A stretch of DNA of 64,000 nucleotides from positions 186,001 to 250,000 of the forward strand of contig NZ_JAPQFJ010000003.1 of NCBI RefSeq assembly GCF_026738875.1, given 5' to 3'. Position 1 is the first letter of the stretch, and every line of letters begins with the position of its first letter. Below, piece after piece: positions 980 to 35,430 of this stretch. The position numbers were made by a program, and so were the translations under genes. The notes under the pieces are model-generated. The model was not told the DNA's origin. It made no database searches and was given only the letters and a program-made list of their open reading frames with translations. This DNA is from Clostridium brassicae. GTDB lineage: Bacteria > Bacillota > Clostridia > Clostridiales > Clostridiaceae.

Positions 980-1037
980 TACGATATAAATTATTTTTAC
1001 GATATAAGTTGACAAATAAGTTACGTAGTATTATAAT
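980..1037 (+). promoter_or_regulatory. Sigma-70 promoter with tandem TACG elements
   Basis: TTGACA (1009-1014), a 17-bp spacer and TATAAT (1032-1037) make a consensus vegetative promoter. Two direct copies of the 13-bp element, TACGATATAAATT (980) and TACGATATAAGTT (998), sit upstream. The second overlaps the first bases of the -35 box and lies 34 bp upstream of the -10. Its position fits a site for a repressor or class II activator. It drives the first accessory block (1233 onward). Confidence 0.8.
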
Positions 1038-1063
1038 AAATATATAAAATAAATGATAAAAGT

Positions 1064-1186
1064 GCCTAATATTTATTTTATGAAGTAAGACCTAATTCAT
1101 ATTGCGTACGAATGTGGATTAGGCTTTCAGAAAACATATAAGCATAACGATTCTATTGCATAATACACTCTATTAATTTAGAGTGT
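1064..1186 (+). promoter_or_regulatory. Structured 5' leader with competing hairpins
   Basis: CCTAATTCATATT (1091-1103) pairs with AATGTGGATTAGG (1111-1123). An upstream GCCTAAT (1064-1070) could compete for the same ATTAGGC strand (1118-1124). A second perfect hairpin, ACACTCTA/TAGAGTGT (1165-1186), is followed by TTTACTTTT. The layout resembles an attenuator-type leader ahead of the first YopX gene. No known riboswitch class was recognised. Confidence 0.4.
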
Positions 1187-1232
1187 TTACTTTTAAATTT
1201 GAATATAATTATAATTATAAGGAGGGAAAGCA

Positions 1233-1667
1233 ATGAGAGAAATTAAATTTAGAGGTAAAAGAGTTGATAATGGTGAATGGGTCTATGGATATTATTGCAA
1301 AGAAGATTTAGGAGAAGAAGGAATAAAGCATGTTATAATACCTGTTTATAGTTATAAGTATGTTGATGGAAAAACAGTAGGCCAATATACAGGACTTAAA
1401 GATAAAAACGATAAGAGAATATATGAAGGTAGTATTGTTAAATACACTTTTGATGTGCCTGGATCAGTATATGCAACAAAAAATGGATTAAAAGAAAGAA
1501 TAAGTGAAGTGTTTTGGTCTGATTGGAGAAGTTCGTTTTCTGTATATGCTGATAAAAATAGTAAATTAGCTAATAATGATTTATTTAGATATGTAAGAAA
1601 TGGAAATACCGTTGAAATAATAGGGAACATATATGATAATCCAGAACTTTTAAAGGGAGGTAAATAA
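1233..1667 (+). CDS. YopX family protein 1
   Basis: This 144-residue protein begins with MREIKFRGK and continues through the family hallmarks GEWVYGYY, VGQYTGLKDKN and IYEGSIVKY, ending in EIIGNIYDNPELL. This is the standard YopX layout in Firmicute phages, a small beta-rich domain of unknown biochemical role. It starts at an ATG 9 nt after GGAGGG and is the first gene behind the promoter at 980-1037. It is followed directly by a second YopX-like gene, so the pair are probable paralogues in one transcript. Confidence 0.9.
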   Translation: MREIKFRGKRVDNGEWVYGYYCKEDLGEEGIKHVIIPVYSYKYVDGKTVGQYTGLKDKNDKRIYEGSIVKYTFDVPGSVYATKNGLKERISEVFWSDWRSSFSVYADKNSKLANNDLFRYVRNGNTVEIIGNIYDNPELLKGGK

Positions 1668-2078
1668 ATGAATAATATTAAATTTAGGTCATATACACCT
1701 AGCGGAATGATTGAAGTTAAAACTGTTGATTTTGAGACAGGATGGGCAACATTTAATGATGTTCTAGGAATTCAAGAATTCAATATAAAAGAGTTTCCAC
1801 TATTACAATTTACAGGACTCCATGATAAAAATGGAAATGAAGTTTACGAAGGAGATATATTATTAAGAGATTTGGGATATGTAAAACAAATGGAGTATAT
1901 ATGTTATGAAAAAGGTATGTTTAAGGGTCATTGGTTTAAAGAATGGAGAAACCCATTTAAAAAGTGGTTTCCGGATGATACAACATTAGATGCTTATAGT
2001 TTTATAAAACAATTTGAAGTCGTAGGAAATATATATGAAAATCCAGAATTACTACAGTTGGACAGAAAAGTCCAATAA
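1668..2078 (+). CDS. YopX family protein 2
   Basis: This 136-residue protein shares the YopX core with its neighbour: FTGLHDKNGNEVYEGDILL and VVGNIYENPELL. The N-terminal strand NNIKFRSYTPSG is diverged, and a Trp/Phe/Lys-rich stretch is inserted around residues 80-105. The ATG directly follows the stop codon of the previous gene, so translation is probably coupled. The function of the family is not established. Confidence 0.85.
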   Translation: MNNIKFRSYTPSGMIEVKTVDFETGWATFNDVLGIQEFNIKEFPLLQFTGLHDKNGNEVYEGDILLRDLGYVKQMEYICYEKGMFKGHWFKEWRNPFKKWFPDDTTLDAYSFIKQFEVVGNIYENPELLQLDRKVQ

Positions 2079-2093
2079 TAAAGGAGGATTAAA

Positions 2094-2246
2094 GTGGATA
2101 AAAGAGAACTTAAACAAAAGACATTGTATATATTTCAAGACCAAGACGACATGTTAAAGAGGATAAGTAAAGAGCATGGAGAAGAAAGCTATCATATAAG
2201 GGCTGCTTTGGATCAGTATTTAGGAAAGTTTAAGGGGGAAAATTAA
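2094..2246 (+). CDS. Small ribbon-helix-helix-like protein
   Basis: A 50-residue protein starting at GTG behind AAGGAGG. The segment TLYIFQDQDDMLKRISKEHG followed by HIRAALDQYLGKF has the strand-helix-helix pattern of RHH (CopG/Arc) DNA-binding proteins. Binding is inferred from pattern only. It sits in the accessory block between terminase and portal. Confidence 0.55.
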   Translation: MDKRELKQKTLYIFQDQDDMLKRISKEHGEESYHIRAALDQYLGKFKGEN

Positions 2247-2247
2247 A

Positions 2248-2451
2248 ATGAAAAATTACACAGTGAGTGTTCCAATAAGCGGATGGGTATGTGTTTCTGT
2301 AGAAGCTAATAACGAGGATGAAGCTATAAGCAAAGCTTTTGAAGAAGCTACATTAGAAGATTTAGAAGAGTGGGAAATGCATAAATGTATAGTAGAAGGA
2401 AATGTATTCCATGGATTAATGAATGAAATTGATATATTTAAAGAAGATTAA
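2248..2451 (+). CDS. Hypothetical small phage protein
   Basis: A 67-residue acidic protein with good RBS spacing (AAGGGGG). The beginning, KNYTVSVPISGWVCVSVEANNEDEAI, resembles small phage proteins with a beta strand followed by an Ala/Glu-rich helix. No function can be assigned. It sits in the same operon as the RHH-like gene. Confidence 0.6.
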   Translation: MKNYTVSVPISGWVCVSVEANNEDEAISKAFEEATLEDLEEWEMHKCIVEGNVFHGLMNEIDIFKED

Positions 2452-2466
2452 ATAGGGGGTGATCAG

Positions 2467-2673
2467 ATGGATATTACAATAAACATTCCATATATAGAAA
2501 GTAATTTTACCAGACGAGTTCCTAAAGAACTAATTGATATTGATTTAAATGAAATAAATCTAACTATTAAAGATTTTGACAATATTAAAGTATTTGAAGG
2601 GTTCGAAGTTTTGTCAGTTACGGAAGATGAAGAATATATATTGTTAAGCCTAGGTAATAAGTTAAAAAAATAG
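2467..2673 (+). CDS. Hypothetical protein
   Basis: A 68-residue, strongly acidic protein behind a GGGGGTGAT site. Alternating hydrophobic and charged residues suggest beta structure. It is not recognised. It follows the 2248 gene by 15 bp in the same transcription unit. Confidence 0.5.
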   Translation: MDITINIPYIESNFTRRVPKELIDIDLNEINLTIKDFDNIKVFEGFEVLSVTEDEEYILLSLGNKLKK

Positions 2674-2683
2674 GAGGTGCAAT

Positions 2684-3067
2684 ATGAATAGTAATTTATA
2701 TAAATTACAAAAAGATTTTGAAATATACTTAAATAATATTTCAACACTAACAAATAAATCATTAGAAGAAGTTTACAAACAAGCTAGAGATTTATCAGAA
2801 ACAACCCCTATGTCTATATCAGATGCTTTAGCAGTTACTGCAAATAAAATAAATGATGTATATGTTGAGAAGAATATTAAACAGGAGAATATGTACAGTT
2901 CATATAAGGTAACCTCAATCCAACCTTGGAAGATGAAAGCTGTTACAAGTAACAACACTTTACAACACTTAGCAATGGCAGGATATTGTACTAATAAAGA
3001 ACTGCAAGACATGAATATAATTAAGTTGAATAGAAATAAAAGGAGAAGTAAGTCTAGCAAAAGCTAG
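2684..3067 (+). CDS. Hypothetical protein
   Basis: A 127-residue mostly helical protein with a basic C-terminal tail (RNKRRSKSSKS), behind AGGAGGTG. It is the last gene of the first accessory block, and its final codons and stop lie inside the intrinsic terminator at 3051-3075. Genes whose stop is embedded in the terminator recur in this phage (12304, 14918, 35392). It is not recognised. Confidence 0.55.
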   Translation: MNSNLYKLQKDFEIYLNNISTLTNKSLEEVYKQARDLSETTPMSISDALAVTANKINDVYVEKNIKQENMYSSYKVTSIQPWKMKAVTSNNTLQHLAMAGYCTNKELQDMNIIKLNRNKRRSKSSKS

Positions 3068-3075
3068 GCTTTTTT
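3051..3075 (+). terminator. Intrinsic terminator
   Basis: AGTCTAGC (3051-3058), loop AAAA, GCTAGGCT (3063-3070) and a T5 run. The 8-bp stem has one G-T pair. It ends the block that begins at 1233, and the next TACG promoter follows 14 bp later. Confidence 0.85.
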
Positions 3076-3088
3076 ATTTGTTATTGTG

Positions 3089-3128
3089 TACGGTATTACT
3101 TTAAAAATAATATAAAATGTAGTATAAT
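3089..3128 (+). promoter_or_regulatory. TACG-element promoter
   Basis: TACGGTATTACTT starts at 3089 and TATAAT is at 3123-3128, the same 34-bp offset seen at the 980-1037 promoter. The -35 region reads TTTAAA, so the promoter may depend on a factor bound at the element. It drives the RHH-like and replication-initiator genes at 3158 and 3318. Confidence 0.72.
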
Positions 3129-3157
3129 ATAAGCATAGGTACGCTGGAGGTGTAAAA

Positions 3158-3316
3158 ATGTTAACTGAAAATGAATTAAGAACTGATTCTATTCCTAAGA
3201 TAAAAGTCACTCCTAATGAAAAACGTGTAATTGAGAATAGAATGGCTGAATTAGGATTCAAAAAGTATGGTAAATATGTTAGATATTGCATTAAGAAGGA
3301 AATGGAGGGTAAGTAA
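3158..3316 (+). CDS. Ribbon-helix-helix-like small protein
   Basis: A 52-residue protein, ATG after GGAGGTG. The stretch IKVTPNEKRVIENRMAELGF followed by YGKYVRYCIKK is the beta-helix-helix pattern of MobC/CopG-like RHH proteins. It lies just upstream of a replication-initiator-like gene, a position often used by copy or initiation regulators. The DNA-binding role is inferred. Confidence 0.6.
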   Translation: MLTENELRTDSIPKIKVTPNEKRVIENRMAELGFKKYGKYVRYCIKKEMEGK

Positions 3317-3317
3317 T

Positions 3318-4043
3318 ATGTCAGTAATTAGAGTTAATAAAGATAAAAATAATCCATATTTACTAATGAATAAAACTGGTTTAAATGATGAAAGACTTAG
3401 CTGGAAAGCAAAAGGATTACTAGCTTATTTATTAAGTCTTCCAGATGATTGGAAGATTTATATAGAAGAACTATCTAAACATTCTAAAGATGGGGTGAAG
3501 TCAACTAGTTCTGGTATAAAAGAACTTATAGAAAACGGATATGTAGAAAGGTCGATACTTAAAGATGAAGAAAATAAGTTTGCTGGATATGAGTATGTAA
3601 TCGCCGAAACGCCGAAATGGGCGAACGGGAAACAGGAGAACCCAAAAAGGCAGGCTACTAAATATCCATTTAAACTAAGTAATAATAAACTAAGTAAAGG
3701 GAACGAAAGAAAGTTATCGTTCTATGAATTGATTGATAACTATAATTTATCATCTATAGAGAAAATAGATGATGCTATAAAGATAATTGAATACTATATA
3801 TCAGTATATGAAGATGTATTTAAAATTAAACATATTAATTATACTGTTGAACAATGGGTTAATATACTAGAAGATATTTTTAAAAACAGTATTTGTGATG
3901 ATACAAATATAGAAGTTCTAAAAAATGCAATAGATAAACATTTTAGTACAAAGTACAAGTATAAAGAAATATATTATTTGCATAACTTTAAAGACAAAGT
4001 AAAAGACAATAGATTATATGAATCAGATATTTTATGTTGTTAA
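3318..4043 (+). CDS. Phage replication initiator, winged-helix N-terminal domain
   Basis: A 241-residue protein. Residues 1-85 (SVIRVNKDKNNPYLLMNK, then LSWKAKGLLAYLLSLPDDW and STSSGIKELIENGYVER) match the winged-helix domain of phage and plasmid replication initiators. A linker with an unusually GC-rich coding patch (about 3600-3650, CGCCGAAA twice) separates it from a helical C-terminal region. The ATG at 3318 is chosen because it follows the upstream stop closely. Its location among late structural genes, downstream of terminase, is unusual. Confidence 0.72.
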   Translation: MSVIRVNKDKNNPYLLMNKTGLNDERLSWKAKGLLAYLLSLPDDWKIYIEELSKHSKDGVKSTSSGIKELIENGYVERSILKDEENKFAGYEYVIAETPKWANGKQENPKRQATKYPFKLSNNKLSKGNERKLSFYELIDNYNLSSIEKIDDAIKIIEYYISVYEDVFKIKHINYTVEQWVNILEDIFKNSICDDTNIEVLKNAIDKHFSTKYKYKEIYYLHNFKDKVKDNRLYESDILCC

Positions 4044-4072
4044 TATTTATATTTAGTAACAGAAAGAGTTTT

Positions 4073-4091
4073 TACCATGGGGCGCGCGAAA
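4073..4091. other. GC-rich patch CCATGGGGCGCGCG
   Basis: In the gap between 4043 and 4108 the sequence switches abruptly to CCATGGGGCGCGCGAAATT, about 14 nearly pure G/C bases in a region otherwise near 25% GC. It has no coding role and just precedes the RBS of the 4108 gene. Its purpose is unknown. Confidence 0.6.
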
Positions 4092-4107
4092 TTAAGGAGG
4101 TTTGATA

Positions 4108-4323
4108 ATGATTATAAAATATGAACCCAGTTTGGTTTTATATACTGATTCTAATATTAGAATCACAACATTGAATATAGGAGAAGAAATTTCCTTTATA
4201 ACAGGTGACGGAACAGTATACAAAGGTAAGCTTATAAACATAAGAAAAAATGATATAACCATCAGTGATAGGAATGACAATAAAACAATTATGAATTTGA
4301 ATAACATAGAGGTATTTATATAG
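4108..4323 (+). CDS. Hypothetical small beta-rich protein
   Basis: A 71-residue protein. The ATG at 4108 is preferred over an upstream TTG because AAGGAGG lies 8 nt before it. The pattern SFITGDGTVYKGKLINIRKNDITI resembles small SH3-like/YopX-like folds, but no family is recognised. Confidence 0.5.
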   Translation: MIIKYEPSLVLYTDSNIRITTLNIGEEISFITGDGTVYKGKLINIRKNDITISDRNDNKTIMNLNNIEVFI

Positions 4324-4331
4324 GAGGAATT

Positions 4332-4559
4332 ATGTGTAAATTTTGTGAAGAAAATTTTGAAATTGATACTATGATAGGAGAAAGACAAGTAATAATAAGG
4401 CTTGATGAAGAAAATAAAGAATGGTTGAAAGTTAGAGTACCGTTTGCCAACAATGGATGGGATAGTGGAGCAATAACAAAACCTTTTAATATTAATTATT
4501 GCCCATTTTGTGGTAAAAGCTTAATTGAGGAGGAGTTAAATGTTTTTAGTGAAAAATAA
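4332..4559 (+). CDS. Zinc-ribbon small protein
   Basis: A 75-residue protein with CKFC at residues 2-5 and CPFCGK near residue 57, a four-Cys zinc-ribbon arrangement with a long insert. No catalytic motif is visible. Its last 20 bases overlap the next gene's start. Confidence 0.6.
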   Translation: MCKFCEENFEIDTMIGERQVIIRLDEENKEWLKVRVPFANNGWDSGAITKPFNINYCPFCGKSLIEEELNVFSEK

Positions 4560-4827
4560 AAAAACAAGAGATCAATTAATTGAAATAGAGTATGGTTACA
4601 ATCCTAATCGGTTTATACAATATTGCAAAACATATCCATGTAAAAATGGATATTATTCTAATATTAAAAAACGTTGGAGAAATTTCTTTTATATGATTTT
4701 ACAATTAGTTATAACGCCTTTTCTTGTAGTTTTCGCATTATATTATGCGATACAAAGTTTATTTCCATATTGCTTGGTTATAACGAAAATTAAATCAGAA
4801 AAAAACAAGGAGGGATTGAATGTATAA
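4540..4827 (+). CDS. Small membrane protein
   Basis: A 95-residue protein with a basic N-terminal half and one strong hydrophobic segment, MILQLVITPFLVVFALYYAI (about residues 51-70). It starts inside the previous gene at an ATG behind GAGGAG. No family is recognised; a single-pass membrane protein is the best description. Confidence 0.55.
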   Translation: MFLVKNKKTRDQLIEIEYGYNPNRFIQYCKTYPCKNGYYSNIKKRWRNFFYMILQLVITPFLVVFALYYAIQSLFPYCLVITKIKSEKNKEGLNV

Positions 4828-5362
4828 ATACACCGATAAAGAATTAAAAGAAATATATGACAATATAGTAATTTTACATGCCAAAAACGAACAAAAAAAT
4901 AAGCATATATTAGATTACTTTGATAAGAAGAAAGTACAACACAAACCTTATACTTTAAAAACAGGGGATTATAGTTTTATGATTAAGGCTATACCAAAGT
5001 TAGGAATAGTAAGGGACATATATTTTGACAACAGTATAGCAATAGAGAGAAAAGCTAACTTAGAAGAATTATCTAACAACATAGGTAATGATCGCACTAG
5101 GTTTACAGATGAACTTATGAGAGCAAAGTTTAAAAATATGTTATTCATAATAGCATTAGAACAAGGCACATGGGGAGATTTAAGTTGGCACAGATATAAA
5201 ACTAAGTACGATAACGAAAGATTTATAAGCACACTAAATGCTTTTCAAATAGATTATAATGTGCATATAGAAATGATTAACGATAAAATAGCGTTTGGTC
5301 ACTATATAAAGAAAAAGTTTGAAATGTATGCTAAAAGATACTTTCTAGCTACAGAAATATAA
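4820..5362 (+). CDS. ERCC4-type (XPF-like) nuclease
   Basis: A 180-residue protein. TGDYSF around Asp50 and the IERK motif at 75-78, followed by LEELSNN, match the GDY...ERK signature of ERCC4 nucleases, which cut branched or flap DNA. Basic residues follow at RTRFTDELMRAKF. The size fits a stand-alone nuclease domain. It probably handles recombination or replication intermediates. It overlaps the previous gene by 8 bp and closes this operon. Confidence 0.78.
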   Translation: MYKYTDKELKEIYDNIVILHAKNEQKNKHILDYFDKKKVQHKPYTLKTGDYSFMIKAIPKLGIVRDIYFDNSIAIERKANLEELSNNIGNDRTRFTDELMRAKFKNMLFIIALEQGTWGDLSWHRYKTKYDNERFISTLNAFQIDYNVHIEMINDKIAFGHYIKKKFEMYAKRYFLATEI

Positions 5363-5393
5363 AAAATTAACATGATATAATGTAAATAGAATG

Positions 5394-5423
5394 AACTTCG
5401 TGAAATGCAGATTTAGCGAAGTT
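5394..5423 (+). promoter_or_regulatory. Hairpin in intergenic region
   Basis: AACTTCG (5394-5400) and CGAAGTT (5417-5423) are perfect inverted arms, with AAAT/ATTT able to extend the stem after two weak positions. Just upstream is ATGATATAATGTAAATAG, also found at 12320-12336 in front of the protease gene. A TATAAT-containing sequence is therefore repeated, but no TACG element stands at the usual distance here. Confidence 0.4.
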
Positions 5424-5493
5424 GTCTTAAAACTCATTTAAACGCAAAATAAGAGCATATAAACATAAAATGTAGAATTAGTCTAGTATGTTG

Positions 5494-5506
5494 TACGATA
5501 TAGCTT
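5494..5506 (+). promoter_or_regulatory. TACG element upstream of 5541 gene
   Basis: TACGATATAGCTT, a member of the 13-bp family, begins 47 bp before the 5541 start codon. No -10 box stands 34 bp downstream, so it may act as an operator in the leader rather than at a promoter. Confidence 0.5.
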
Positions 5507-5540
5507 AAATTTTAAATTTGAGTGTTACGGAGGTAGTTAA

Positions 5541-5711
5541 ATGAAATACATAATTATTTTTTTGCTGTACATATATGGTATGACAGGGATTTTTATTAGT
5601 ATAAAGTTGTTTAAAAACACGATTGGAAAAATACTAGGTGGAGTTTACTTTGGATTGTTCTGGTTGCCGATACTGATAAGTGAAATTATTAAAAGAAGAA
5701 TGGAGGTTTGA
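5541..5711 (+). CDS. Small two-segment membrane protein
   Basis: A 56-residue protein, ATG after ACGGAGGT. Hydrophobic segments IIIFLLYIYGMTGIFI and GVYFGLFWLPILI suggest two membrane passes with a basic end (IIKRRMEV). No family is recognised. It is translationally close to the 5715 gene. Confidence 0.5.
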   Translation: MKYIIIFLLYIYGMTGIFISIKLFKNTIGKILGGVYFGLFWLPILISEIIKRRMEV

Positions 5712-5714
5712 AAA

Positions 5715-5969
5715 ATGAAATATAGAAAGAAACCAGTTGTTATTGAAGCTTGTAAGTTTGTAGTGGGAAGTTTAGCACCAGATTGGTACGCAGAAGAAGT
5801 GAAAAAAGGAAATATAATAGATAATAAAAATTGTTCTGGTGAAATACAAATTATTACACTTGAAGGCGTTATGAAAGCAAAAGAAGGAGACTACATTATA
5901 AAAGGAGTGAATGGAGAACTTTATCCATGCAAACCAGATATTTTTGAAAAGACTTACGAAAAAATCTAA
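5715..5969 (+). CDS. Conserved phage protein of unknown function (KPVVIEA...GDYIIKGVNGE type)
   Basis: An 84-residue protein with the pattern MKYRKKPVVIEA, a variable centre and GDYIIKGVNGELYPCKPDIFE. This layout is very common in phages of Gram-positive and other bacteria, but its function is not known. It lies 12 bp upstream of the portal gene. Confidence 0.75.
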   Translation: MKYRKKPVVIEACKFVVGSLAPDWYAEEVKKGNIIDNKNCSGEIQIITLEGVMKAKEGDYIIKGVNGELYPCKPDIFEKTYEKI

Positions 5970-5981
5970 GGAGGTGATTAT

Positions 5982-7265
5982 ATGAAATTATCTAATATAT
6001 TTGAATTGAAAGCTAGAGATAATAAAAATATCTACACCAAGATTATGAAAACACAAGGCAATAGTCCTCGCTATAGTGATGTGAATTACACTACTATAGC
6101 TAAAGAAGGGTATATGCGTAACTGGATTATATTTAGATGTATGCAAGAAATAATTAAGGGTGCAATACAGTTAAATTGGAAAGTAAAAAGAAAAAATGCT
6201 GATGGAGAAGATGAAGAAATATTAAATCATCCTGCATTAAAAGTATTAGAAAACCCTAATCCTCTTTACGGAGAGTCCGAGTTAATTAAAAGGGCAATAG
6301 CATTTTATTACATACAAGGAGAAGCACCTTTCCACAGAATAGTAACAAGTAATGGGGTAAAAGAATTATATGTTTACAGACCAGACAGAATAAGCTTTAA
6401 CAGTACAGGAGATATAAAAAGACCTTACGAACAAATAAGATATTTAAGCGGATCATATGTAGATATAGAACCAGAAAACTTTATGTTGTGGAAAAACTTT
6501 AACCCTCTTGACGATTGGGACGGATTGGGACATGGCATGAGTATGTTAGAACCTATATTAAAGAATGGAGATTTGCTAAACGAATTAGTTAACTGGAATA
6601 TTTCTCTTTTACAGAATGGTGGAAATTTAAGCGGAGTAATAGCTTTAAATGAAAATGTTACAGATAACCAATTTGACAGAATGGAAGAAAGTTTAAAGAA
6701 CAAACACCAAGGCGTTGAAAATGTAGGTAAATATATGCTATTACAAGGTGTAGCGAGTTATATTAATACTGGGACTAACCCTAAAGACATGGATTGGAAT
6801 GAAGGAAAGAAAAACACAATGCAAGATATTTGTATAGGTATGGGAGTTGACCCTATACTTATCGGATTTAATGAAAATAGCAGCTATAACAATAAAAACG
6901 AAGCTGAAAAAGGGTTATATACTAAAACAGTAATACCACTTATGAGGGAATTATCCGACCAAATGTCATTGTTTTTAAGTTTAGACACAGAAAAAGGAGA
7001 ATATATTGACATAGATTATAGTCATATACCAGTTTTGCAAGAAGACATGAAAGAATTGTATGATAGATTAAGTAAGGCTAAAGACATGACTATTAACGAG
7101 AAAAGAAAAGCTAAAGGAATGGACCCGTTAGACGGTGGAGATATAATAGCGCCAGAAGGTTCATTTGCAATAGTAGATGGAAAAATATATCTACCTATGA
7201 ACTTGATTGAATTAGACAGTGTACAGCAAACTGCACAAGAAGAAAACAAGTCTTTTCTATACTAG
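5982..7265 (+). CDS. Phage portal protein (HK97 family)
   Basis: A 427-residue protein, a normal length for HK97-type portals. Its N-terminal YMRNWIIFRCMQEIIKGAI, central LNHPALKVLENPNP and ENFMLWKNFNP match the portal family, as does the region KNTMQDICIGMGVDPILIGF. Twelve copies form the DNA channel at the capsid vertex and dock the terminase. A strong AGGAGGTG precedes the ATG. Head assembly genes follow directly. Confidence 0.92.
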   Translation: MKLSNIFELKARDNKNIYTKIMKTQGNSPRYSDVNYTTIAKEGYMRNWIIFRCMQEIIKGAIQLNWKVKRKNADGEDEEILNHPALKVLENPNPLYGESELIKRAIAFYYIQGEAPFHRIVTSNGVKELYVYRPDRISFNSTGDIKRPYEQIRYLSGSYVDIEPENFMLWKNFNPLDDWDGLGHGMSMLEPILKNGDLLNELVNWNISLLQNGGNLSGVIALNENVTDNQFDRMEESLKNKHQGVENVGKYMLLQGVASYINTGTNPKDMDWNEGKKNTMQDICIGMGVDPILIGFNENSSYNNKNEAEKGLYTKTVIPLMRELSDQMSLFLSLDTEKGEYIDIDYSHIPVLQEDMKELYDRLSKAKDMTINEKRKAKGMDPLDGGDIIAPEGSFAIVDGKIYLPMNLIELDSVQQTAQEENKSFLY

Positions 7266-7306
7266 AAAGAAAGGAGGTTGATAAGGAAGAAAGGATTAAT
7301 AAAAGA

Positions 7307-8068
7307 TTGCTGCAACAATATGACAGAATAATATTGCCTTTAGAAAAAAGATTTAAAATTAAAATAACAACTATATTAAATAAACAAGCAGAAGAAATCA
7401 GCAAAACGTTTAAAAAATATATGAATGAACGTAAAGCTGATGGTATAGATGAAGAAGAAGCAGAGGAAATAAGCAACAATATATACAAAGCAGATAAAGG
7501 TGTACAGACAATAATGGCAGCATTATTACCACTCTATATGAATGCTGGTGAACTAGGAAATAATTTCTTTAATAACATACACTTCGCAAATGAAGAAGAA
7601 GGCACTCTATTTGCAATAATTAGAGAAGATTATTTGCAATGGTTAGAAGAATATGGAGCAGAACAAGTCGTTAATATAAATACTACTACTAAAGAATTAA
7701 CAAAGAGAATAATTAAAAATGGATTAATGAATGGGGATAGTATAGATAGCATATCAGAAGAATTAAGCAGTAGAATAAAGGAATATACAAAAGCTAGAGC
7801 GGTTAATATTGCTGAAACAGAAATGCATAACTCGTTCATGAGGTCGAATTTTTTAACAGGAGAAGTAAGTGGGTTTAAATTTAAAAAATGGATAAGCGCA
7901 CAAGATGCGAGTGTAAGGCCATCACATCAAAGTTTAGATGGAATGGTTGTTAAAGTTAGTGAAGATTTTAAACCTGGACTAAGTTATCCGGGTGATCCAC
8001 GAGCAAGTGCTAAAGAAACAATAAGATGTAGATGTGTAATTAGGTTCATGATGCAAGAGGATGATTGA
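7307..8068 (+). CDS. Head morphogenesis protein, Mu gpF / SPP1 gp7-like
   Basis: A 253-residue protein. The C-terminal third carries the Phage_Mu_F signature: ETEMHNSF, WISAQDASVRPSHQSLDG, YPGDPRAS and IRCRC. Such minor head proteins bind the portal and sit inside the capsid. The start is uncertain. TTG at 7307 is the first standard start in frame, but AAGGAGG (7271-7277) is too far upstream and no ATG, GTG or TTG follows it in frame. A rare ATT at 7295 is possible. Confidence 0.85.
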   Translation: MLQQYDRIILPLEKRFKIKITTILNKQAEEISKTFKKYMNERKADGIDEEEAEEISNNIYKADKGVQTIMAALLPLYMNAGELGNNFFNNIHFANEEEGTLFAIIREDYLQWLEEYGAEQVVNINTTTKELTKRIIKNGLMNGDSIDSISEELSSRIKEYTKARAVNIAETEMHNSFMRSNFLTGEVSGFKFKKWISAQDASVRPSHQSLDGMVVKVSEDFKPGLSYPGDPRASAKETIRCRCVIRFMMQEDD

Positions 8069-8093
8069 GAAGGATAATACCTTCTCTTTTTTT
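8067..8093 (+). terminator. Intrinsic terminator (GAGAAGG family)
   Basis: GAGAAGG, loop ATAATA, CCTTCTC and T7, starting at the stop codon of the head protein gene. Nearly the same stem recurs at 21865, 23245 and 25439. Confidence 0.92.
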
Positions 8094-8096
8094 ATT

Positions 8097-8167
8097 AAGT
8101 AATACCGTAAAATATTTAAATAATTTGTACGATATTACTTGAAATTAAATGTAAATAAGTATATAAT
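8097..8167 (+). promoter_or_regulatory. Inverted pair of TACG elements with promoter
   Basis: AAGTAATACCGTA (8097-8109) is the inverted form of TACGATATTACTT (8128-8140), with one mismatch over 13 bp and 18 bp between them. TATAAT lies at 8162-8167, again 34 bp from the TACG of the right-hand copy, with TTGAAA near -35. This drives the accessory block 8278-12012. The inverted arrangement suggests a cooperatively bound operator. Confidence 0.75.
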
Positions 8168-8277
8168 ATAGTTAGTAACAAACATATCAAGTTAATCAAT
8201 TCTTAATATAGTCAATTCAAAGGCGTATTATTCGTATATTATGTCTTTACAAAGTAAAGCAAAAGGAGGAATTAAGT

Positions 8278-8427
8278 ATGAAGTGTAATGCAGACGCATA
8301 TGTAAAAGATTGTTGTAATCAAGAAAATTGTTGTGAAGAATGTGGATATGAAGATTGTATGGAAAGTTGCTGTATATTTGATGAAACAGAAAAGTGTGAG
8401 AATTGTAAGTTTTGTATTAAAGATTAA
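8278..8427 (+). CDS. Very Cys-rich small protein (12 Cys in 49 residues)
   Basis: A 49-residue acidic protein behind AAAAGGAGG. Cysteines fall at 3, 12, 13, 18, 19, 22, 27, 31, 32, 40, 43 and 46, with CC pairs and CxxC spacings. The composition suggests metal binding (zinc or iron-sulfur) or a disulfide-rich peptide; no signal peptide is present, so intracellular metal binding is more likely. It is not recognised. It is the first gene of its transcript. Confidence 0.7.
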   Translation: MKCNADAYVKDCCNQENCCEECGYEDCMESCCIFDETEKCENCKFCIKD

Positions 8428-8456
8428 TTCTTCACAACTTTAAAGGAGTTGATAAT

Positions 8457-8621
8457 TTGAAAAGTCAAGAGCAAGTAGAAAAACAGCTTGTAGAATTATT
8501 AAGAGAACAAGCTGATAGATTAGAAAAAGGAGATATAAAAGACATTTTTGTTTATAAAGCGATTAGACAACAAATACCAGTTTTAGAGGATATATTAGAG
8601 TTAAATGTGCTTAATAAATAA
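8457..8621 (+). CDS. Small helical protein
   Basis: A 54-residue protein starting at TTG 7 nt after AAAGGAGTTG. It is predicted fully helical (EKQLVELLREQADRLEKGD) with coiled-coil character. It is not recognised. After the stop comes AGTCACATTTTAAAAGCAAT, a segment repeated at 17066 and partly at 25415. Confidence 0.5.
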   Translation: MKSQEQVEKQLVELLREQADRLEKGDIKDIFVYKAIRQQIPVLEDILELNVLNK

Positions 8622-8657
8622 GTCACATTTTAAAAGCAATGTAAAGGTGGTGAATAA

Positions 8658-8828
8658 ATGGAAATTGAATATGTAGAAGATAGAACATTGGGTTTGGATG
8701 ATAAAGAACGCACATACTTATTACCTAAATGTCCTGCTTGTGGTAAATACCCAACTTACAATATGAATCCTTGCCCTTACTGTGGTGAGTTTTTAGAATA
8801 TCCAGAAGAAATCGAAGTATCAAAGTAG
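8658..8828 (+). CDS. Zinc-ribbon small protein
   Basis: A 56-residue protein with CPACGKY and CPYCGEF spaced 14 residues apart, a clean rubredoxin/zinc-ribbon pair. It is translated from an ATG after AAAGGTGGTG. Such proteins are common phage accessory genes; no partner is evident. Confidence 0.65.
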   Translation: MEIEYVEDRTLGLDDKERTYLLPKCPACGKYPTYNMNPCPYCGEFLEYPEEIEVSK

Positions 8829-8838
8829 TTTTAAACCC

Positions 8839-8850
8839 GTCGAATTCGAC
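8839..8850. repeat. 12-bp perfect palindrome
   Basis: GTCGAATTCGAC is a perfect 12-bp palindrome in the gap between the 8658 and 8877 genes. It could be a protein-binding site or a small hairpin. No second copy was noticed. Confidence 0.4.
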
Positions 8851-8876
8851 CAGTTTAGAAGGGTGATGAATTAAAT

Positions 8877-9047
8877 TTGAAAATATCTAAAGCAATAACT
8901 GAAATCTTTAAACAAAAAGAACATACTCAAATGTTAATAGACGATACTGTTAGAAATGATCACAATAATAGAGTAAAAATAAGCAGATTAATAGGGAAAA
9001 GAGAAGGTTTAGAATTAGCATTAGAAATAATAAAAGAAAATATGTGA
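8877..9047 (+). CDS. Hypothetical small protein
   Basis: A 56-residue protein from a TTG start behind AAGGGTGATG. Mixed helix, basic in the middle (RVKISRLIGKREG). No family is recognised. Confidence 0.5.
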   Translation: MKISKAITEIFKQKEHTQMLIDDTVRNDHNNRVKISRLIGKREGLELALEIIKENM

Positions 9048-9083
9048 TTCAAAATATAAAAACATTTCAAAGGTGGCGTAAAA

Positions 9084-9275
9084 ATGGATATGTTTACAAA
9101 GTATTACCACCAAAGATTAAATGATTTAGATACAGAACTAAAGAATTATGAATCCATGTTTGAAGTAGCAGAAGAAAACAGCGAATTATGGGAAGTAGCT
9201 ACATTCAAAATATGGGAAATAAAATGTAAAATAGAGCGTTTTAAAAAAATGTGGAGCGCTGATAAATTAAACTAA
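9084..9275 (+). CDS. Small coiled-coil-like protein
   Basis: A 63-residue helical protein (RLNDLDTELKNYESMFEVAE) from an ATG behind AAAGGTGGC. No family is recognised. Confidence 0.5.
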   Translation: MDMFTKYYHQRLNDLDTELKNYESMFEVAEENSELWEVATFKIWEIKCKIERFKKMWSADKLN

Positions 9276-9288
9276 AGGAGGACTTGCA

Positions 9289-9435
9289 ATGAAAATAAAA
9301 ACATTCCCACTTAAATATGTGGAACAAGATTTAGAAAGAATAGGAAAGGCAGCAGATAAGGTAAAAGAATCTAAAGATGAATTTATTAAGAAAGCTGTAG
9401 AAGAAAGAATAAAAACTGTAGAAGGGGAAAGTTAA
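9289..9435 (+). CDS. Small RHH-like protein
   Basis: A 48-residue protein behind AAAGGAGGAC. FPLKYVEQDLERIGKAADKV followed by DEFIKKAVEERI has the strand-helix-helix pattern of small RHH regulators. DNA binding is inferred from this pattern only. Confidence 0.55.
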   Translation: MKIKTFPLKYVEQDLERIGKAADKVKESKDEFIKKAVEERIKTVEGES

Positions 9436-9457
9436 GTTTTACTTAACAGTAGGTAAT

Positions 9458-9745
9458 ATGTATAAAGTTATAAAATTTAAACGTTATTACCTCGTAGCAA
9501 ATACAAAAGGAGAATACAAGAATCACACCCATATAAATGTACACAGCAGAACAGGAGAAAAAGAGTATAAGATATGTAAAACACTTATTTCTATAATTAA
9601 TGATAAAAGAGTGCCTAAAAGTAATTATTTATTACAAAGTGCTATTAGACTAACACTAGATGAAGAATATAAACACAATCTACTAGAAATACAAAAGAGA
9701 AGAAAACAAAGATATTTTAATAGTCAGAAGGGCGTGAGAAGGTAA
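9458..9745 (+). CDS. Hypothetical basic protein
   Basis: A 95-residue, strongly basic protein (KRYYLV, EIQKRRKQRYF). The N-terminal YYLVANTKGEYKNHTHIN resembles nucleic-acid-binding beta sheets, but no family is recognised. Its stop overlaps the next start (TAATG). Confidence 0.5.
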   Translation: MYKVIKFKRYYLVANTKGEYKNHTHINVHSRTGEKEYKICKTLISIINDKRVPKSNYLLQSAIRLTLDEEYKHNLLEIQKRRKQRYFNSQKGVRR

Positions 9746-9915
9746 TGTTACTGTTATTAAAAACATTTTTAGTGTATGCGATTGCTTGTTTAATTTTTGT
9801 AGCAATAATAACTTATAAGATAATGAGAGTAAGCAAACACATTAAAAAAGAAAAATACAATAAGCATATAAAATATATTAACAGTTCTAAGTGTGTTAGG
9901 GAAATAAATAAATAA
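9745..9915 (+). CDS. Single-pass membrane protein
   Basis: A 56-residue protein with one N-terminal membrane segment (LLLLKTFLVYAIACLIFVAI) and a Lys-rich tail. It is coupled to the upstream gene through TAATG. No family is recognised. Confidence 0.5.
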   Translation: MLLLLKTFLVYAIACLIFVAIITYKIMRVSKHIKKEKYNKHIKYINSSKCVREINK

Positions 9916-9926
9916 TGGAGGTTTGT

Positions 9927-10763
9927 ATGGATAAAGTTAAAAGACATATGGATATATGTCAAGAATTAAATGAAATATATAAAAACAAAAATAGTGACTA
10001 TGGTGATAGTTTTGGAGAAACATTTAAAAAATTAGGAATAATTAGTGCAGTGACGAGAATAACAGACAAGGTTAATAGATTACAAAGTCTATGTACTGGT
10101 GAACAAAAAGTAAACGACGAATCTATATTAGACACACTAAACGATCTAGCCAACTATGCAGTAATGACTAGAATAGAAATCGAAAATATGAGTGAAACAG
10201 AAGAAATTACACTTGGTAAATATGAAACGGTTGGTCATAATGATATGCCAGTATATAAAAAACCTTTTGATAGTGATAGCTTTTTAAAAAATGCAGAAGC
10301 AATAGCACGAGGAAATAGGAATATAGCTAAGCTAAGCGAAATAGAAAATTTCTTATCCTTAAAAAAGTTTTGGTCATTACCACTATATATACAAGATAAT
10401 TTATTAAAGTGGAGAGAAAACTTACCAATTGAAGAAAGAATTAACTTTATACATGTTGTAGGAAATTTTAACACTACAAAAAAAACTGACAATATTGAGG
10501 AATTAGTAGAAGATATAAAACTAGATAAAGATATAGTAGGTAAAGAATATAAAAGCGTACCAATGTTTCAAGTAAATCATTTAATAAAATATATTAAAAC
10601 TATAAAAGATTTTAGAAGTTTAAATATAAAAATATCCGAGAATGGATATGAAGCAGAAACTATATTTGAAAAAACAAGGTTTTTAAATCATGAAAAAAAC
10701 TTAATAGATTTATTAATTAAAATAATTTTAAAAAATGATTTGGAGGAAATTAAAAGTGAATGA
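9927..10763 (+). CDS. DUF1599 (nucleotide modification associated domain 1) protein with C-terminal extension
   Basis: A 278-residue protein, ATG at 9927 chosen for the AATGGAGG site 6 nt upstream. Residues 1-90 (CQELNEIYKNKNSDYGDSFG and RITDKVNRLQSL, then DTLNDLANYA) match DUF1599/Nmad1, an all-alpha domain linked by genome context to modified nucleotides. The remaining 185 residues are helical, do not belong to that domain and were not recognised, so this is an extended or fused form. It may bind or process nucleotides for the phage. Confidence 0.72.
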   Translation: MDKVKRHMDICQELNEIYKNKNSDYGDSFGETFKKLGIISAVTRITDKVNRLQSLCTGEQKVNDESILDTLNDLANYAVMTRIEIENMSETEEITLGKYETVGHNDMPVYKKPFDSDSFLKNAEAIARGNRNIAKLSEIENFLSLKKFWSLPLYIQDNLLKWRENLPIEERINFIHVVGNFNTTKKTDNIEELVEDIKLDKDIVGKEYKSVPMFQVNHLIKYIKTIKDFRSLNIKISENGYEAETIFEKTRFLNHEKNLIDLLIKIILKNDLEEIKSE

Positions 10764-10992
10764 ATTTGAAAAACACTTACAAAACTTTGAATTAAAAGAA
10801 GCCATTCAAAACATAAAAGAAAATTTAGATTTATATCCAGAGTATGCGGCAACTATGGCTAGTATTCTTAAAATGTATTTTGATAGCTTAATCAAAGCGG
10901 GATTTACAGAAGAACAGGCGTTTACATTAGTTATAGAACATGGTGTTGATTATGGTGCTATATCAAGAATGCAATCAAACAAGGAGGATTAA
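10756..10992 (+). CDS. Hypothetical helical protein
   Basis: A 78-residue protein. GTG at 10756 is preferred because TTGGAGGAA lies 7 nt upstream. ATMASILKMYFDSLIKAGFTEEQAFTLV resembles small phage helical proteins often found just before SSB. It overlaps the upstream gene by 8 bp and the SSB gene follows 3 bp later. Confidence 0.6.
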   Translation: MNEFEKHLQNFELKEAIQNIKENLDLYPEYAATMASILKMYFDSLIKAGFTEEQAFTLVIEHGVDYGAISRMQSNKED

Positions 10993-10994
10993 AT

Positions 10995-11384
10995 ATGAAT
11001 AAATGTGTTATTACAGGACGTATTACTAAAGACCCAGAATTAAAGTTTGTTCCAGGTAGTGGGAAAGCAGTAGCAAATTTTACACTAGCTGTAAATAGAA
11101 GATTTAAACAGGAAGGACAACAAAACGCAGATTTTATTCCAGTAGTAGTATGGGGAAAGCAAGCAGAAGCAACAGCTAACTATATGGGAAAAGGAAGCCA
11201 ATTGTCTGTAGCAGGCAGAATTCAAACTAGGAGTTACGATAATAAAGAAGGCAATAAAGTATATATAACTGAAATAGTAGCGGATGAAGTTGAATTTTTA
11301 GATAGTAAAAAAACTGATAATACAAGTAGCCAAATCGAGTATGACGAAGATATGCAACAAGTTGGTGGGGATATACCTTTCTAA
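10995..11384 (+). CDS. ssb: Single-stranded DNA-binding protein
   Basis: A 129-residue protein. OB fold: [38 protein letters not shown] and [10 protein letters not shown]. The acidic tail ends in GGDIPF, the partner-binding tip of bacterial SSBs. The phage encodes its own SSB for replication. Its location among head genes is unusual. Prophage 2 encodes a related SSB at 54762. Confidence 0.95.
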   Translation: MNKCVITGRITKDPELKFVPGSGKAVANFTLAVNRRFKQEGQQNADFIPVVVWGKQAEATANYMGKGSQLSVAGRIQTRSYDNKEGNKVYITEIVADEVEFLDSKKTDNTSSQIEYDEDMQQVGGDIPF

Positions 11385-11389
11385 CCTTG

Positions 11390-11429
11390 TACGGTATAGA
11401 TTAAGAAGGAGGTACGGTATGGATAATAT
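11390..11429 (+). promoter_or_regulatory. Tandem TACG elements around a start codon
   Basis: TACGGTATAGATT (11390) lies right after the ssb stop. TACGGTATGGATA (11413) overlaps the RBS-ATG of the next gene. TAATAT at 11424, 34 bp from the first TACG, could be a -10. A bound protein here could block both transcription and initiation. Confidence 0.5.
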
Positions 11430-11833: not shown

Positions 11834-11844
11834 GAGGTTATTTC

Positions 11845-12079: not shown

Positions 12080-12304
12080 ATGGAATATGTAATTAAAAAA
12101 ATAAAAGGAAATATAGACTATAACAAGCAGGAAATACATGATATGCGAGATGAATTACAAACACATGTAAATCAATGTAGGATTATAAGAGAAAGAATAG
12201 AAGAGTTATATTCTCAAAACAAAGAATTAGAATATGCATTATATAAATTAGATGAACAATATACTAACAAGACTAGAGAAATTCTAGTCTTTTGTACGTT
12301 ATAA
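12080..12304 (+). CDS. Small coiled-coil protein
   Basis: A 74-residue protein with a long coiled coil (EIHDMRDELQTHVNQCRIIR, RIEELYSQNKELE). Its C-terminal codons are read through the terminator stem at 12269-12291, and the stop lies inside the following TACG element. The last residues (REILVFCTL) may therefore be a by-product of the terminator. Confidence 0.55.
   Translation: MEYVIKKIKGNIDYNKQEIHDMRDELQTHVNQCRIIRERIEELYSQNKELEYALYKLDEQYTNKTREILVFCTL
12269..12294 (+). terminator. Intrinsic terminator abutting a TACG element
   Basis: AAGACTAGA, loop GAAAT, TCTAGTCTT, then TTTG running directly into TACG at 12295. The 9-bp perfect stem overlaps the 3' end of the 12080 gene. Confidence 0.85.
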
Positions 12305-12351
12305 CTTAAAATAAAAAGTATGATATAATGTAAATAGTAAGTGATACCGTA
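12295..12351 (+). promoter_or_regulatory. Inverted TACG pair flanking a promoter
   Basis: TACGTTATAACTT (12295-12307) and its inverted partner AAGTGATACCGTA (12339-12351) flank a TATAAT at 12324-12329. The spacing from the first TACG to the -10 is 29 bp, unlike the usual 33-34. The pair stands directly upstream of the protease/capsid operon, so the main head promoter is probably controlled here. Confidence 0.7.
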
Positions 12352-12368
12352 ACAAGGGTGGTGAAGTT

Positions 12369-14939: not shown

Positions 14940-15003
14940 TACGTTATTTATTTAAAATAATTATACGGTATAACTTGACAATTAAGTAAGTTAGTAATAT
15001 AAT
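14940..15003 (+). promoter_or_regulatory. Consensus promoter with two TACG elements
   Basis: TACGTTATTTATT (14940) and TACGGTATAACTT (14964) are direct repeats 24 bp apart. TTGACA (14975-14980), 17 bp and TATAAT (14998-15003) follow. The offset from the second TACG to the -10 is 34 bp, matching 998/1032, 3089/3123 and 8128/8162. It drives the accessory block at 15035-17067. Confidence 0.82.
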
Positions 15004-21934: not shown

Positions 21935-21974
21935 TACGGTATAAGTATAATTATAATTAATACAGTACAATATT
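21935..21974 (+). promoter_or_regulatory. TACG element, weak promoter
   Basis: TACGGTATAAGTA at 21935, with CAATATT about 34 bp downstream as a poor -10. It lies between the moron gene and an excisionase-like HTH gene. Confidence 0.45.
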
Positions 21975-23419: not shown

Positions 23420-23488
23420 AACTTATACCGAAATAATTCTATAAATTTGTACGGTATTACTTGACAAAATTATTATAAGTATTATAAT
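23420..23488 (+). promoter_or_regulatory. Consensus promoter with TACG element pair
   Basis: TACGGTATTACTT (23450-23462) leads into TTGACA (23461-23466); TATAAT is at 23483-23488, 33 bp from TACG. AACTTATACCGAA (23420-23432) is a looser inverted copy. It drives 23510-25413. The 150 bp upstream hold the TTTAA-type repeats also seen near 870-950. Confidence 0.78.
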
Positions 23489-34874: not shown

Positions 34875-34885
34875 GAGGATATTAT

Positions 34886-35253
34886 ATGAAATCAATAAAA
34901 TATTATAAAAATGAATTAACAGGATATAAAGAAAAAAAGATATAGAAAAAGATGAAGTTATAAAAGAAGCTATATTTGAAATACAACAAGCAGAATATAT
35001 ATGCAATGATCAAGAGTTTCCTTACTGGTTAGAAGTAATTAAAAAAACTTATAGCGAATTTGGAAATGTAACATATGAATCTATAGAAGAAGAAAAGACA
35101 GAAGAAGAAATAAAAAAAGAATCTTTAATTAAAAACTTAGCTTCTCTTACTGTGGAAAACAAGAAAAAAGATTTACTTATAAGCAATTTAGCTAAGCAAA
35201 TAAGCAATTTGAATATAAAATTAAATCAAATGGAGGTTGAAAAAAATGTTTGA
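34886..35253 (+). CDS. Tail-fibre-associated protein, apparently made by -1 frameshift
   Basis: ATG at 34886 after AGGAGG opens a frame (KSIKYYKNELTGYKEKK) that stops at 34943. In the -1 frame from GAT at 34940 it continues as DIEKDEVIKEAIFEIQQAEY through EFPYWLEVIKKTYSEFGNV to a coiled coil ending in QMEVEKNV. The heptamer A AAA AAG (34933-34939), the dnaX-type slippery site, lies exactly at the join, so about 120 residues could be made by programmed slippage. A simple indel in the A7 run is the alternative. Confidence 0.65.
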
Positions 35254-35392
35254 TTTTTATAAATTATTTTATCCTATTTATTTATCTATAGATGAATTAA
35301 AAGAAGCTTGCAAATATAAAGTAATTACAGATATAGAGTATAAAGAAATAACAGGAGAAGAGTATATTAAAGAAGATATTAAGGCGGTATAA
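35246..35392 (+). CDS. XkdX-like protein
   Basis: A 48-residue protein: FDFYKLFYPIYLSIDELKEA and ITDIEYKEITGEEY match the XkdX family, small proteins found after tail fibre genes. It starts inside the previous gene, and its end is embedded in the terminator at 35381. Confidence 0.75.
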   Translation: MFDFYKLFYPIYLSIDELKEACKYKVITDIEYKEITGEEYIKEDIKAV

Positions 35393-35400
35393 CCGCCTTT
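35381..35400 (+). terminator. Intrinsic terminator
   Basis: AAGGCGG, loop TATAA, CCGCCTT and TT. It overlaps the last codons of the XkdX-like gene and precedes the lysis block. Confidence 0.85.
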
Positions 35401-35403
35401 TGT

Positions 35404-35430
35404 CCGTTATAGATTAAATAATGTTATAAT
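35404..35430 (+). promoter_or_regulatory. Degenerate TACG element and TATAAT before lysis block
   Basis: CCGTTATAGATT matches the 13-bp element except at its first bases (TCCG instead of TACG). TATAAT is at 35425-35430, but the spacing (22 bp) does not fit the other promoters. The 35497 gene follows after AT-rich sequence with ATATCGGAGTATCGG. Confidence 0.4.

What the first reader, a model, noticed from the sequence alone, without database searches (positions are those of the whole stretch)
980..35415. A 13-bp element, TACGRTATWACTT, dispersed through prophage 1 at a fixed distance from promoters
Copies seen: 980, 998, 3089, 5494, 8097 (inverted), 8128, 11390, 11413 (loose), 12295, 12339 (inverted), 14940, 14964, 21935, 23420 (inverted, loose), 23450 and a degenerate one at 35403. 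At five promoters the TACG starts 33-34 bp upstream of TATAAT (998/1032, 3089/3123, 8128/8162, 14964/14998, 23450/23483), so the 3' end of the element overlaps the -35 box. All are intergenic or at gene starts, and most point in the direction of transcription. The layout resembles the asymmetric 13-bp stoperators bound by mycobacteriophage L5 repressor, and suggests one regulator silences or activates all accessory blocks of the late region at once. I know of no clostridial phage system described this way.
Basis: partly seen in the sequence, partly recalled or inferred. Interest (0 to 1): 0.85.

Follow-up and report, generated by a model that had tools for sequence, protein, structure and literature searches.

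The report
Scattered repressor binding sites across prophage
A dormant virus in a clostridial genome carries some sixteen strong copies of one short DNA switch in front of many of its gene blocks, and a close relative carries a different switch at many of the matching places, which points to one viral repressor protein holding the whole virus silent.

Summary
The element is real. TACGRTATWACTT with at most one mismatch occurs 11 times in the window against 0.48 expected. A matrix trained on 10 window sites finds 6 more in the 13.9-kb early region outside the window, against 0.04 expected. The set spans the ~53-kb prophage, not only late blocks; one site lies in the early promoter beside a 124-aa HTH_3 repressor gene 13.4 kb upstream of the window. 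Five of 16 strong sites have TATAAT at +33/34; three abut ribosome-binding sites.

The key evidence is a sister prophage in Clostridium rectalis (capsid protein 89% identical). It lacks this element, but at nine matching junctions carries GTTAAY-N5-RTTAAC, at two promoters with nearly the same spacing. Its repressor keeps the C-terminal part but differs in the recognition helix.

Most likely these are dispersed operators of the prophage's own repressor, some perhaps acting as transcription roadblocks. The layout resembles L5 stoperators, bacteriophage P1 C1 operators and SPbeta SPBRE, but with a 434/SinR-type repressor and an imperfect dyad: a new variant of a known kind. Binding and silencing are untested.

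The parts
980..992 (+). operator-like element, pair with 998; after the terminase gene
   Evidence: PWM 20.1 bits; sister has its own element after the terminase (C12 9169)
998..1010 (+). element abutting TTGACA-17-TATAAT (1009-1037)
   Evidence: PWM 19.0; promoter 12 of 12
3089..3101 (+). element, TATAAT at +34; follows terminator-like hairpin 3050-3071
   Evidence: PWM 23.3; no sister counterpart found
5494..5506 (+). element before gene 5541-5711
   Evidence: PWM 22.1; sister element C12 11548 before the orthologue
8097..8109 (-). element, inverted partner of 8128; follows terminator-like hairpin 8067-8086
   Evidence: PWM 23.0
8128..8140 (+). element abutting TTGAAA-17-TATAAT (8139-8167)
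   Evidence: PWM 23.6; 11 of 12; sister run C12 14559-14581 at the same junction
11390..11402 (+). element directly before an AGGAGG-type ribosome-binding site
   Evidence: PWM 19.8, not in the training set; no sister counterpart found
12295..12307 (+). element before the head maturation protease; TATAAT at +29
   Evidence: PWM 22.2; sister run C12 19839-19861 before the orthologue
12339..12351 (-). element, inverted partner of 12295
   Evidence: PWM 20.5
14940..14952 (+). weaker element, direct pair with 14964, after the capsid operon
   Evidence: PWM 13.4; sister run C12 22468-22490 at the same junction
14964..14976 (+). element abutting TTGACA-17-TATAAT (14975-15003)
   Evidence: PWM 22.0; 12 of 12
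21935..21947 (+). weaker element, inverted pair with 21955 (-), before the HTH gene 22072 and antirepressor 22399
   Evidence: PWM 12.9 and 15.2; sister C12 27731 before the orthologous pair
23420..23432 (-). weak inverted partner of 23450
   Evidence: PWM 10.8
23450..23462 (+). element abutting TTGACA, TATAAT at +33; upstream of the block holding antirepressor 24423-25160
   Evidence: PWM 25.1; no sister counterpart found
   Evidence: 1 mismatch, PWM only 11.0
35403..35415 (+). degenerate copy before gene 35497; the sister junction also holds only a degenerate half-site (by eye)
   Evidence: PWM 11.7

Best explanation
The element is the dispersed operator of prophage 1's own immunity repressor, a 124-aa HTH_3 (434/SinR-like) protein encoded at G000:C23:172272-172649 (-), 13.4 kb upstream of the window, beside a serine integrase. 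In the lysogen the repressor would occupy the early rightward promoter and some fifteen further clusters. At five promoters the dyad centre lies about 4-5 bp upstream of the -35 box, so bound repressor would cover the -35 and block initiation. At sites that abut a ribosome-binding site without a clear promoter it may block elongation, as stoperators do. Antirepressor genes lie downstream of two clusters, so loss of repression would also release the repressor's antagonists. Shown here: enrichment, positions, promoter geometry, a different element at nine matching junctions of the sister phage, and the divergent recognition helix. Inferred: binding by this protein, repression, roadblocking, feedback.
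For: Enrichment and held-out early-region test, 6 against 0.04 (one of the 6, L002:7125, is coding and was dropped later). A site lies between -35 and -10 of the early promoter TTGATA-17-TACAAT beside the repressor gene. Among the 14-mers of the 550 bp upstream of the repressor gene, those most over-represented in the rest of the phage are this element, 7 against 0.28, 7 of 7 intergenic or at gene edges. Sister phage: no site of 14 bits or more, but its own dyad at matching junctions, overlap P 0.0006 to 0.008. Repressors 47% identical, C-terminal part conserved, recognition segment VSATFLSDIE against VSKSSIYYLE. In the sister the element is densest at its repressor/early region.
Against: No binding data. 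7 of 16 P1 clusters have no clear sister counterpart (3089, 9569, 11390, 13839, 23420/23450, 25490/25508, 35403), and sister C18:3860 and the weak C12:27040 have none here. Junctions were matched by hand, some by one shared neighbour gene only. The site is more asymmetric than expected for a symmetric dimer. The SpoIIID-like protein has diverged as much overall (46%). The sister's own seeded test is weak (11 against 2.38, p 4e-5), no better than three unrelated stretches whose hits proved mainly coding.
Confidence: 0.8

Rival explanations
1. The sites are bound by the phage SpoIIID-like protein (L002:9298-9561), a small HTH regulator that would suit an asymmetric site and would time middle or late transcription.
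For: Pfam SpoIIID, E 1.5e-31. Present in both phages, 46% identical. An asymmetric site fits a monomer (SpoIIID as monomer is recalled).
Against: Most of its recognition segment is kept (SKSTVHKYI against SKSTIQKDI) although the element changed. Sites lie inside the early promoter beside the repressor gene. The sister element is a clean dyad.
Confidence: 0.08
2. The element is an activator site: a phage activator bound about 40 bp upstream of the start turns the promoters on.
For: The dyad centre, 4-5 bp upstream of the -35 box, is where class II activators sit (recalled).
Against: The promoters at 998 and 14964 match the consensus 12 of 12 and 8128 11 of 12, so should need no activator. Sites also lie inside the early promoter and at ribosome-binding sites.
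Confidence: 0.06
3. It is an RNA-level or translational signal in mRNA leaders, for instance at the ribosome-binding sites.
For: Sites L002 8426 and 12010 and window 11390 lie immediately before the ribosome-binding site, and the sister has near-identical site/RBS units before two genes.
Against: At five promoters the element lies upstream of the -10 and so outside the transcript. Inverted copies exist. The 11-bp step of the sister runs fits DNA helical repeat.
Confidence: 0.04
4. Chance or composition: AT-rich intergenic DNA.
For: With 3 mismatches the counts equal chance.
Against: 11 against 0.48; held-out early region 6 against 0.04; none at 16 bits or more in prophage 2, host stretches or the sister phage.
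Confidence: 0.01

Closest known systems
Mycobacteriophage L5 / cluster A repressor and stoperators (PMC6550527, PMC9283540; passages seen)
   Same: Many sites of one short asymmetric sequence over the genome, mostly oriented with transcription, some in promoters and others in short intergenic gaps; related phages with different repressors have different site sequences.
   Different: Here a 124-aa HTH_3 protein and a hidden dyad, against a monomer with two DNA-binding domains; clostridial host; elongation block not shown.
Bacteriophage P1 C1 operators (PMC8546580; passages seen)
   Same: 22 dispersed asymmetric operators of one repressor; inverted pairs recalled.
   Different: Other site sequence: three chance-level matches of the C1 consensus at up to 3 mismatches in 52.8 kb (chance not computed). 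C1 homology not searched.
SPbeta SPBRE bound by MrpR (PMC10516654; passages seen)
   Same: A repeated 15-bp element in promoter regions over a Firmicute prophage, bound by the master repressor.
   Different: MrpR has a tyrosine-recombinase fold; the candidate here is HTH_3. Whether the prophage encodes an MrpR relative was not searched.
cI/434/SinR-type HTH_3 repressor switches
   Same: Repressor domain (Pfam HTH_3; SinR and 434 repressor among the PDB matches), divergent lysogeny/early layout, dyad operators in the sister.
   Different: Classic cases have a few operators at one switch (recalled); here sixteen strong sites over the prophage.

Membership tests
L5-type stoperator system | Many sites over the genome, oriented with transcription, most not at promoters | tested here: met
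   16 strong sites, 13 on the lytic strand; 5 of 16 with TATAAT at +33/34
L5-type stoperator system | Fully asymmetric site | tested here: inconclusive
   CG in the left half of 16 of 16 and not in the right half, yet significant self-complementarity
L5-type stoperator system | Monomeric repressor with HTH plus a second DNA-binding domain | tested here: not met
   124 aa, only HTH_3-type matches in Pfam and in the PDB sequence search; by sequence only
L5-type stoperator system | Block of elongation, dependent on site orientation | not testable with these tools
   needs reporters
HTH_3 (434/SinR-type) repressor-operator system | HTH_3 repressor beside the integrase, divergent from early genes, with operator in the early promoter | tested here: met
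HTH_3 (434/SinR-type) repressor-operator system | Dyad operator | tested here: met
   clean in the sister, imperfect here
Bacteriophage P1 C1 operators | 17-bp consensus ATTGCTCTAATAAATTT | tested here: not met
   the element is a different sequence; 3 matches at up to 3 mismatches in 52.8 kb
SPbeta MrpR/SPBRE | Repressor of tyrosine-recombinase fold | tested here: not met
   candidate repressor matches HTH_3; an MrpR relative elsewhere in the prophage was not searched for

The most novel reading that the evidence does not exclude
A compact HTH_3 repressor in a clostridial lineage of phages with a contractile-tail sheath gene runs a prophage-wide stoperator system: it blocks initiation at a handful of promoters and elongation at promoterless sites that abut ribosome-binding sites. 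Immunity specificity in this lineage changes by a concerted switch of the repressor recognition helix and the dispersed sites, while the head genes around several of them stay 69-91% identical.
Probability: 0.33. Interest if true: 0.75.

Novelty: new variant of a known kind. Interest (0 to 1): 0.57.

Why it matters
If true, dispersed-operator silencing of a whole prophage extends to clostridial phages and to a common small repressor type. The pair of sister prophages is a natural case for asking how one repressor and many operators change specificity together, and it predicts that the two are heteroimmune. The element also maps the silenced blocks, including antirepressor genes that would feed back on induction.

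Tried and rejected
Rejected as related systems: G107 contig C29 has copies of CCTGCGTATAAGT, but they belong to longer repeats with shared flanks. G178 contig C7 has three TTGTACGGTATAAT copies that serve as the -10 of a repeated promoter with a different palindrome. The 28 viral stretches with an exact match (parts of contigs) hold one strong match each and at most two weak further ones; the 10 were not scanned. The sister words AATAGTTTTGG and GGTAATAGTTG are repeats inside a 1217-aa tail-region gene. L002:7125 (17.2 bits) was dropped from the strong set because it lies in a small ORF whose sister encodes the same residues; L002:12043 (13.8 bits) lies in a coding sequence.

Led nowhere: viral-contig searches with the repressor, the triple-HTH and the SpoIIID-like protein confirmed no relative. 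The phages collection gave distant HTH matches and one 108-bp match. The genome-contig scan with the two-row capsid alignment gave only C. rectalis (such patterns reach mainly close relatives). In 206 family genomes no other genome had more than two matches to the 16-mer. A class search with the repressor alignment matched 11 of 391 genomes at E<=1e-14, the own genome and G117 included; most others match in the HTH part and were not followed, apart from G005.

Screen of further stretches: nine beside a distant repressor relative, plus prophage 2 (three of them only 5-9 kb). Words from G089, prophage 2 and G111 reached p 4e-6 to 4e-5, as good as or better than the sister's own p of 4e-5; on checking, 4 of 4, 5 of 6 and 7 of 7 of their copies are coding, against 0 of 7 here and 2 of 11 in the sister. 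The claim that the set is special to this lineage is therefore modest.

A first junction-overlap test was faulty, because two clusters fell in no segment; one search replaces it. The EM run was cut in output and counts both strands; I use it only for consensus and spacing.

Papers: searches listed no dispersed-operator system of a clostridial phage; subscription papers are mostly not held, so this is weak. phi105 asymmetric operators and phiC31 inverted repeats are recalled only (for phiC31, found nothing).

Full report
WHAT WAS CHECKED. The window is bases 186001-250000 of contig C23 of a 4.1-Mb genome. TACGRTATWACTT with at most one mismatch occurs 11 times, all between 980 and 25502, against 0.48 expected and a largest value of 4 in 100 shuffles. 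With three mismatches the count equals chance (139 against 128), so single loose copies prove little. The genome holds 7 exact copies, 6 in this prophage.

THE SET IS LARGER THAN REPORTED. DNA upstream of the window was fetched (L001, L002). Prophage 1 begins at about L002:4510 with a serine-integrase-like gene (-) and an HTH repressor gene (L002:6272-6649, -), followed by rightward early genes (the integrase is named from its sequence by eye). Alignment to a genome without the prophage places the right end near window 37284, in an ABC-transporter ATPase gene, so the prophage is about 53 kb. A 16-column matrix trained on 10 window sites finds 17 matches of at least 16 bits in 51 kb, against a shuffle mean of 0.10 (largest 2 of 200). 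The late part of that number is circular, because ten of its eleven sites trained the matrix. The clean test is the early region, not used in training: 6 matches against 0.04, largest 1 of 300 shuffles. None reaches this score in 50 kb of prophage 2 and its flank, 24.5 kb of host DNA, 35 kb from elsewhere on the contig, or 47 kb of the sister phage. Dropping L002:7125, which is coding, leaves 16 strong sites: L002 6918(-), 8426, 9569, 12010, 13839; window 980, 998, 3089, 5494, 8097(-), 8128, 11390, 12295, 12339(-), 14964, 23450.

ANATOMY. Five of the 16 (998, 3089, 8128, 14964, 23450) have TATAAT at +33/34; chance for a random intergenic position is 5.4%. The three best promoter-like matches in window 800-15300 are at 998, 14964 and 8128. 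One site lies between -35 and -10 of the rightward early promoter TTGATA-17-TACAAT beside the repressor gene. Sites L002:8426, L002:12010 and window 11390 lie just before an AGGAGG-type ribosome-binding site. The promoter scan of the early region finds as many matches as shuffles do (50 against 49.6); it lists none within 50 bp upstream of 8426 and one weak match (9 of 12) upstream of 12010. Several sites form pairs: direct 980/998 and 14940/14964; inverted 8097/8128, 12295/12339, 21935/21955 and 23420/23450. The matrix is partly self-complementary about TACGGTA|TWACTTA (48.5 against a column-shuffle mean of 24.7, none of 500 as high). Yet CG stands in the left half of all 16 and not in the right half, so the site is an imperfect dyad with one constant half.

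THE SISTER PHAGE. Of 225 genomes of the order searched with the capsid protein at E<=1e-30, one besides the own genome matched: G117, 89% identical. Its prophage is split over two contigs (C18 end, C12 start), taken as one by synteny. It has no site of 14 bits or more of our element. De novo motif finding in its intergenic DNA gives GTTAAY-N5-RTTAAC, partly in runs with an 11-bp step. A matrix trained on 16 of these finds 20 positions of at least 11 bits in its 49.8 kb, 3 in our phage and 1 in prophage 2 (partly circular). Nine clusters match ours: the repressor/early region (C18 3540-3666 with 6918); before the orthologue of the L002:8455 gene (5408/5439 with 8426); before the dUTPase-like block (9141/9172 with 12010; block-level only); after the terminase (C12 9169 with 980/998; the gene that follows differs); before the orthologue of gene 5541 (11548 with 5494); after the orthologue of 7307-8068 (14559-14581 with 8097/8128); before the protease (19839-19861 with 12295/12339); after the capsid operon (22468-22490 with 14940/14964); before the HTH/antirepressor pair (27731 with 21935/21955). 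C18:3860 has no counterpart, and the weak C12:27040 was not assigned. Seven of our 16 clusters (9569, 13839, 3089, 11390, 23420/23450, 25490/25508, 35403) lack a clear one; at 35403 both phages hold only a degenerate copy (by eye). Against length-weighted random placement in 41 intergenic segments the overlap has P=0.0006 (all clusters, 9 of 9, mean 5.0), 0.001 (strong clusters, 8 of 9, mean 4.2) or 0.008 (without the repressor region and 12010, 6 of 7, mean 3.0). Junctions were assigned by hand. Dyad centre to -10 box is 26.5-27.5 bp at our five promoters and 27 bp at C12 14581 and 22490; at other sister sites and at our 12295 it differs.

WHO BINDS. The repressors are 47% identical: the C-terminal part is largely kept (FPNGLTYEQMC), the recognition segment is not (VSATFLSDIE against VSKSSIYYLE). 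The SpoIIID-like pair (46%) keeps most of its recognition segment. The sigma-like and triple-HTH genes have no sister match at E 1e-4, and the 79-aa HTH gene matches only the sister repressor. Independently, the 14-mers of the 550 bp upstream of the repressor gene that recur most in the rest of the phage are this element (7 against 0.28), 7 of 7 intergenic or at gene edges. Solved relatives are HTH_3-type regulators, SinR and the 434 repressor among them.

HOW IT MOST LIKELY WORKS. In the lysogen the repressor covers the early promoter and the other clusters. At promoters it overlaps the -35 box. At ribosome-binding sites it may act as a roadblock, by analogy with L5, where reversed sites lose activity (PMC9283540, passages). 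Two antirepressor genes (window 22399-23241 and 24423-25160) lie downstream of clusters 21935/21955 and 23420/23450, and the sister has an orthologue of the first downstream of C12:27731. Repression of the antagonist would sharpen induction. None of these functional steps was tested.

COMPARISON AND NOVELTY. Dispersed operators of one repressor are known: L5 and relatives with 20-30 oriented sites (PMC6550527, passages), bacteriophage P1 with 22 asymmetric C1 operators (PMC8546580, passages), SPbeta with SPBRE bound by MrpR (PMC10516654, passages). The present case shares the layout but has a small HTH_3 repressor, an imperfect dyad and a clostridial host, and comes with a relative in which another element stands at matching junctions. 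Ten further stretches screened gave no comparable intergenic set, though three were short and only the best words were checked. I class it as a new variant of a known kind.

Noticed in passing
window 22399-23241 and 24423-25160: Two antirepressor-type genes (PHROGs) lie in the late region downstream of site clusters; the sister has an orthologue of the first downstream of its own element.
   Followed up: partly
L002:8769-9561: The early region encodes a sigma-70-like protein (regions 2 and 4) and a SpoIIID-like protein (Pfam); the sister phage has only the latter.
   Followed up: partly
window about 37284, and L002 about 4510: Prophage 1 appears to sit inside an ABC-transporter ATPase gene that is whole in G107.
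   Followed up: partly
window 43695-64000 and onward: A second prophage with its own integrase and HTH repressor follows after a few host genes; no dispersed intergenic motif besides ribosome-binding-site words was found in it.
   Followed up: partly
L002:14418-15968: An ORF that reads like ThyX with a large inserted block, possibly an intein with an endonuclease (by eye, recalled; not searched).
   Followed up: no
G107:C29 (L070-L072), for example 11090 and 11289: Long repeats, some inverted, sharing CCTGCGTATAAGT and flanks, scattered over a 49-kb contig.
   Followed up: no
G178:C7:132964, 133550, 140331: Three copies of a promoter with a GACGGTCGTC-like palindrome between -35 and -10, perhaps another dispersed operator.
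   Followed up: no
L066 (C. rectalis) 5398-5465 and 9131-9194: A nearly identical unit of about 65 bp, two dyad sites 31 bp apart followed by a ribosome-binding site, precedes two different genes, as if duplicated as a cassette.
   Followed up: no
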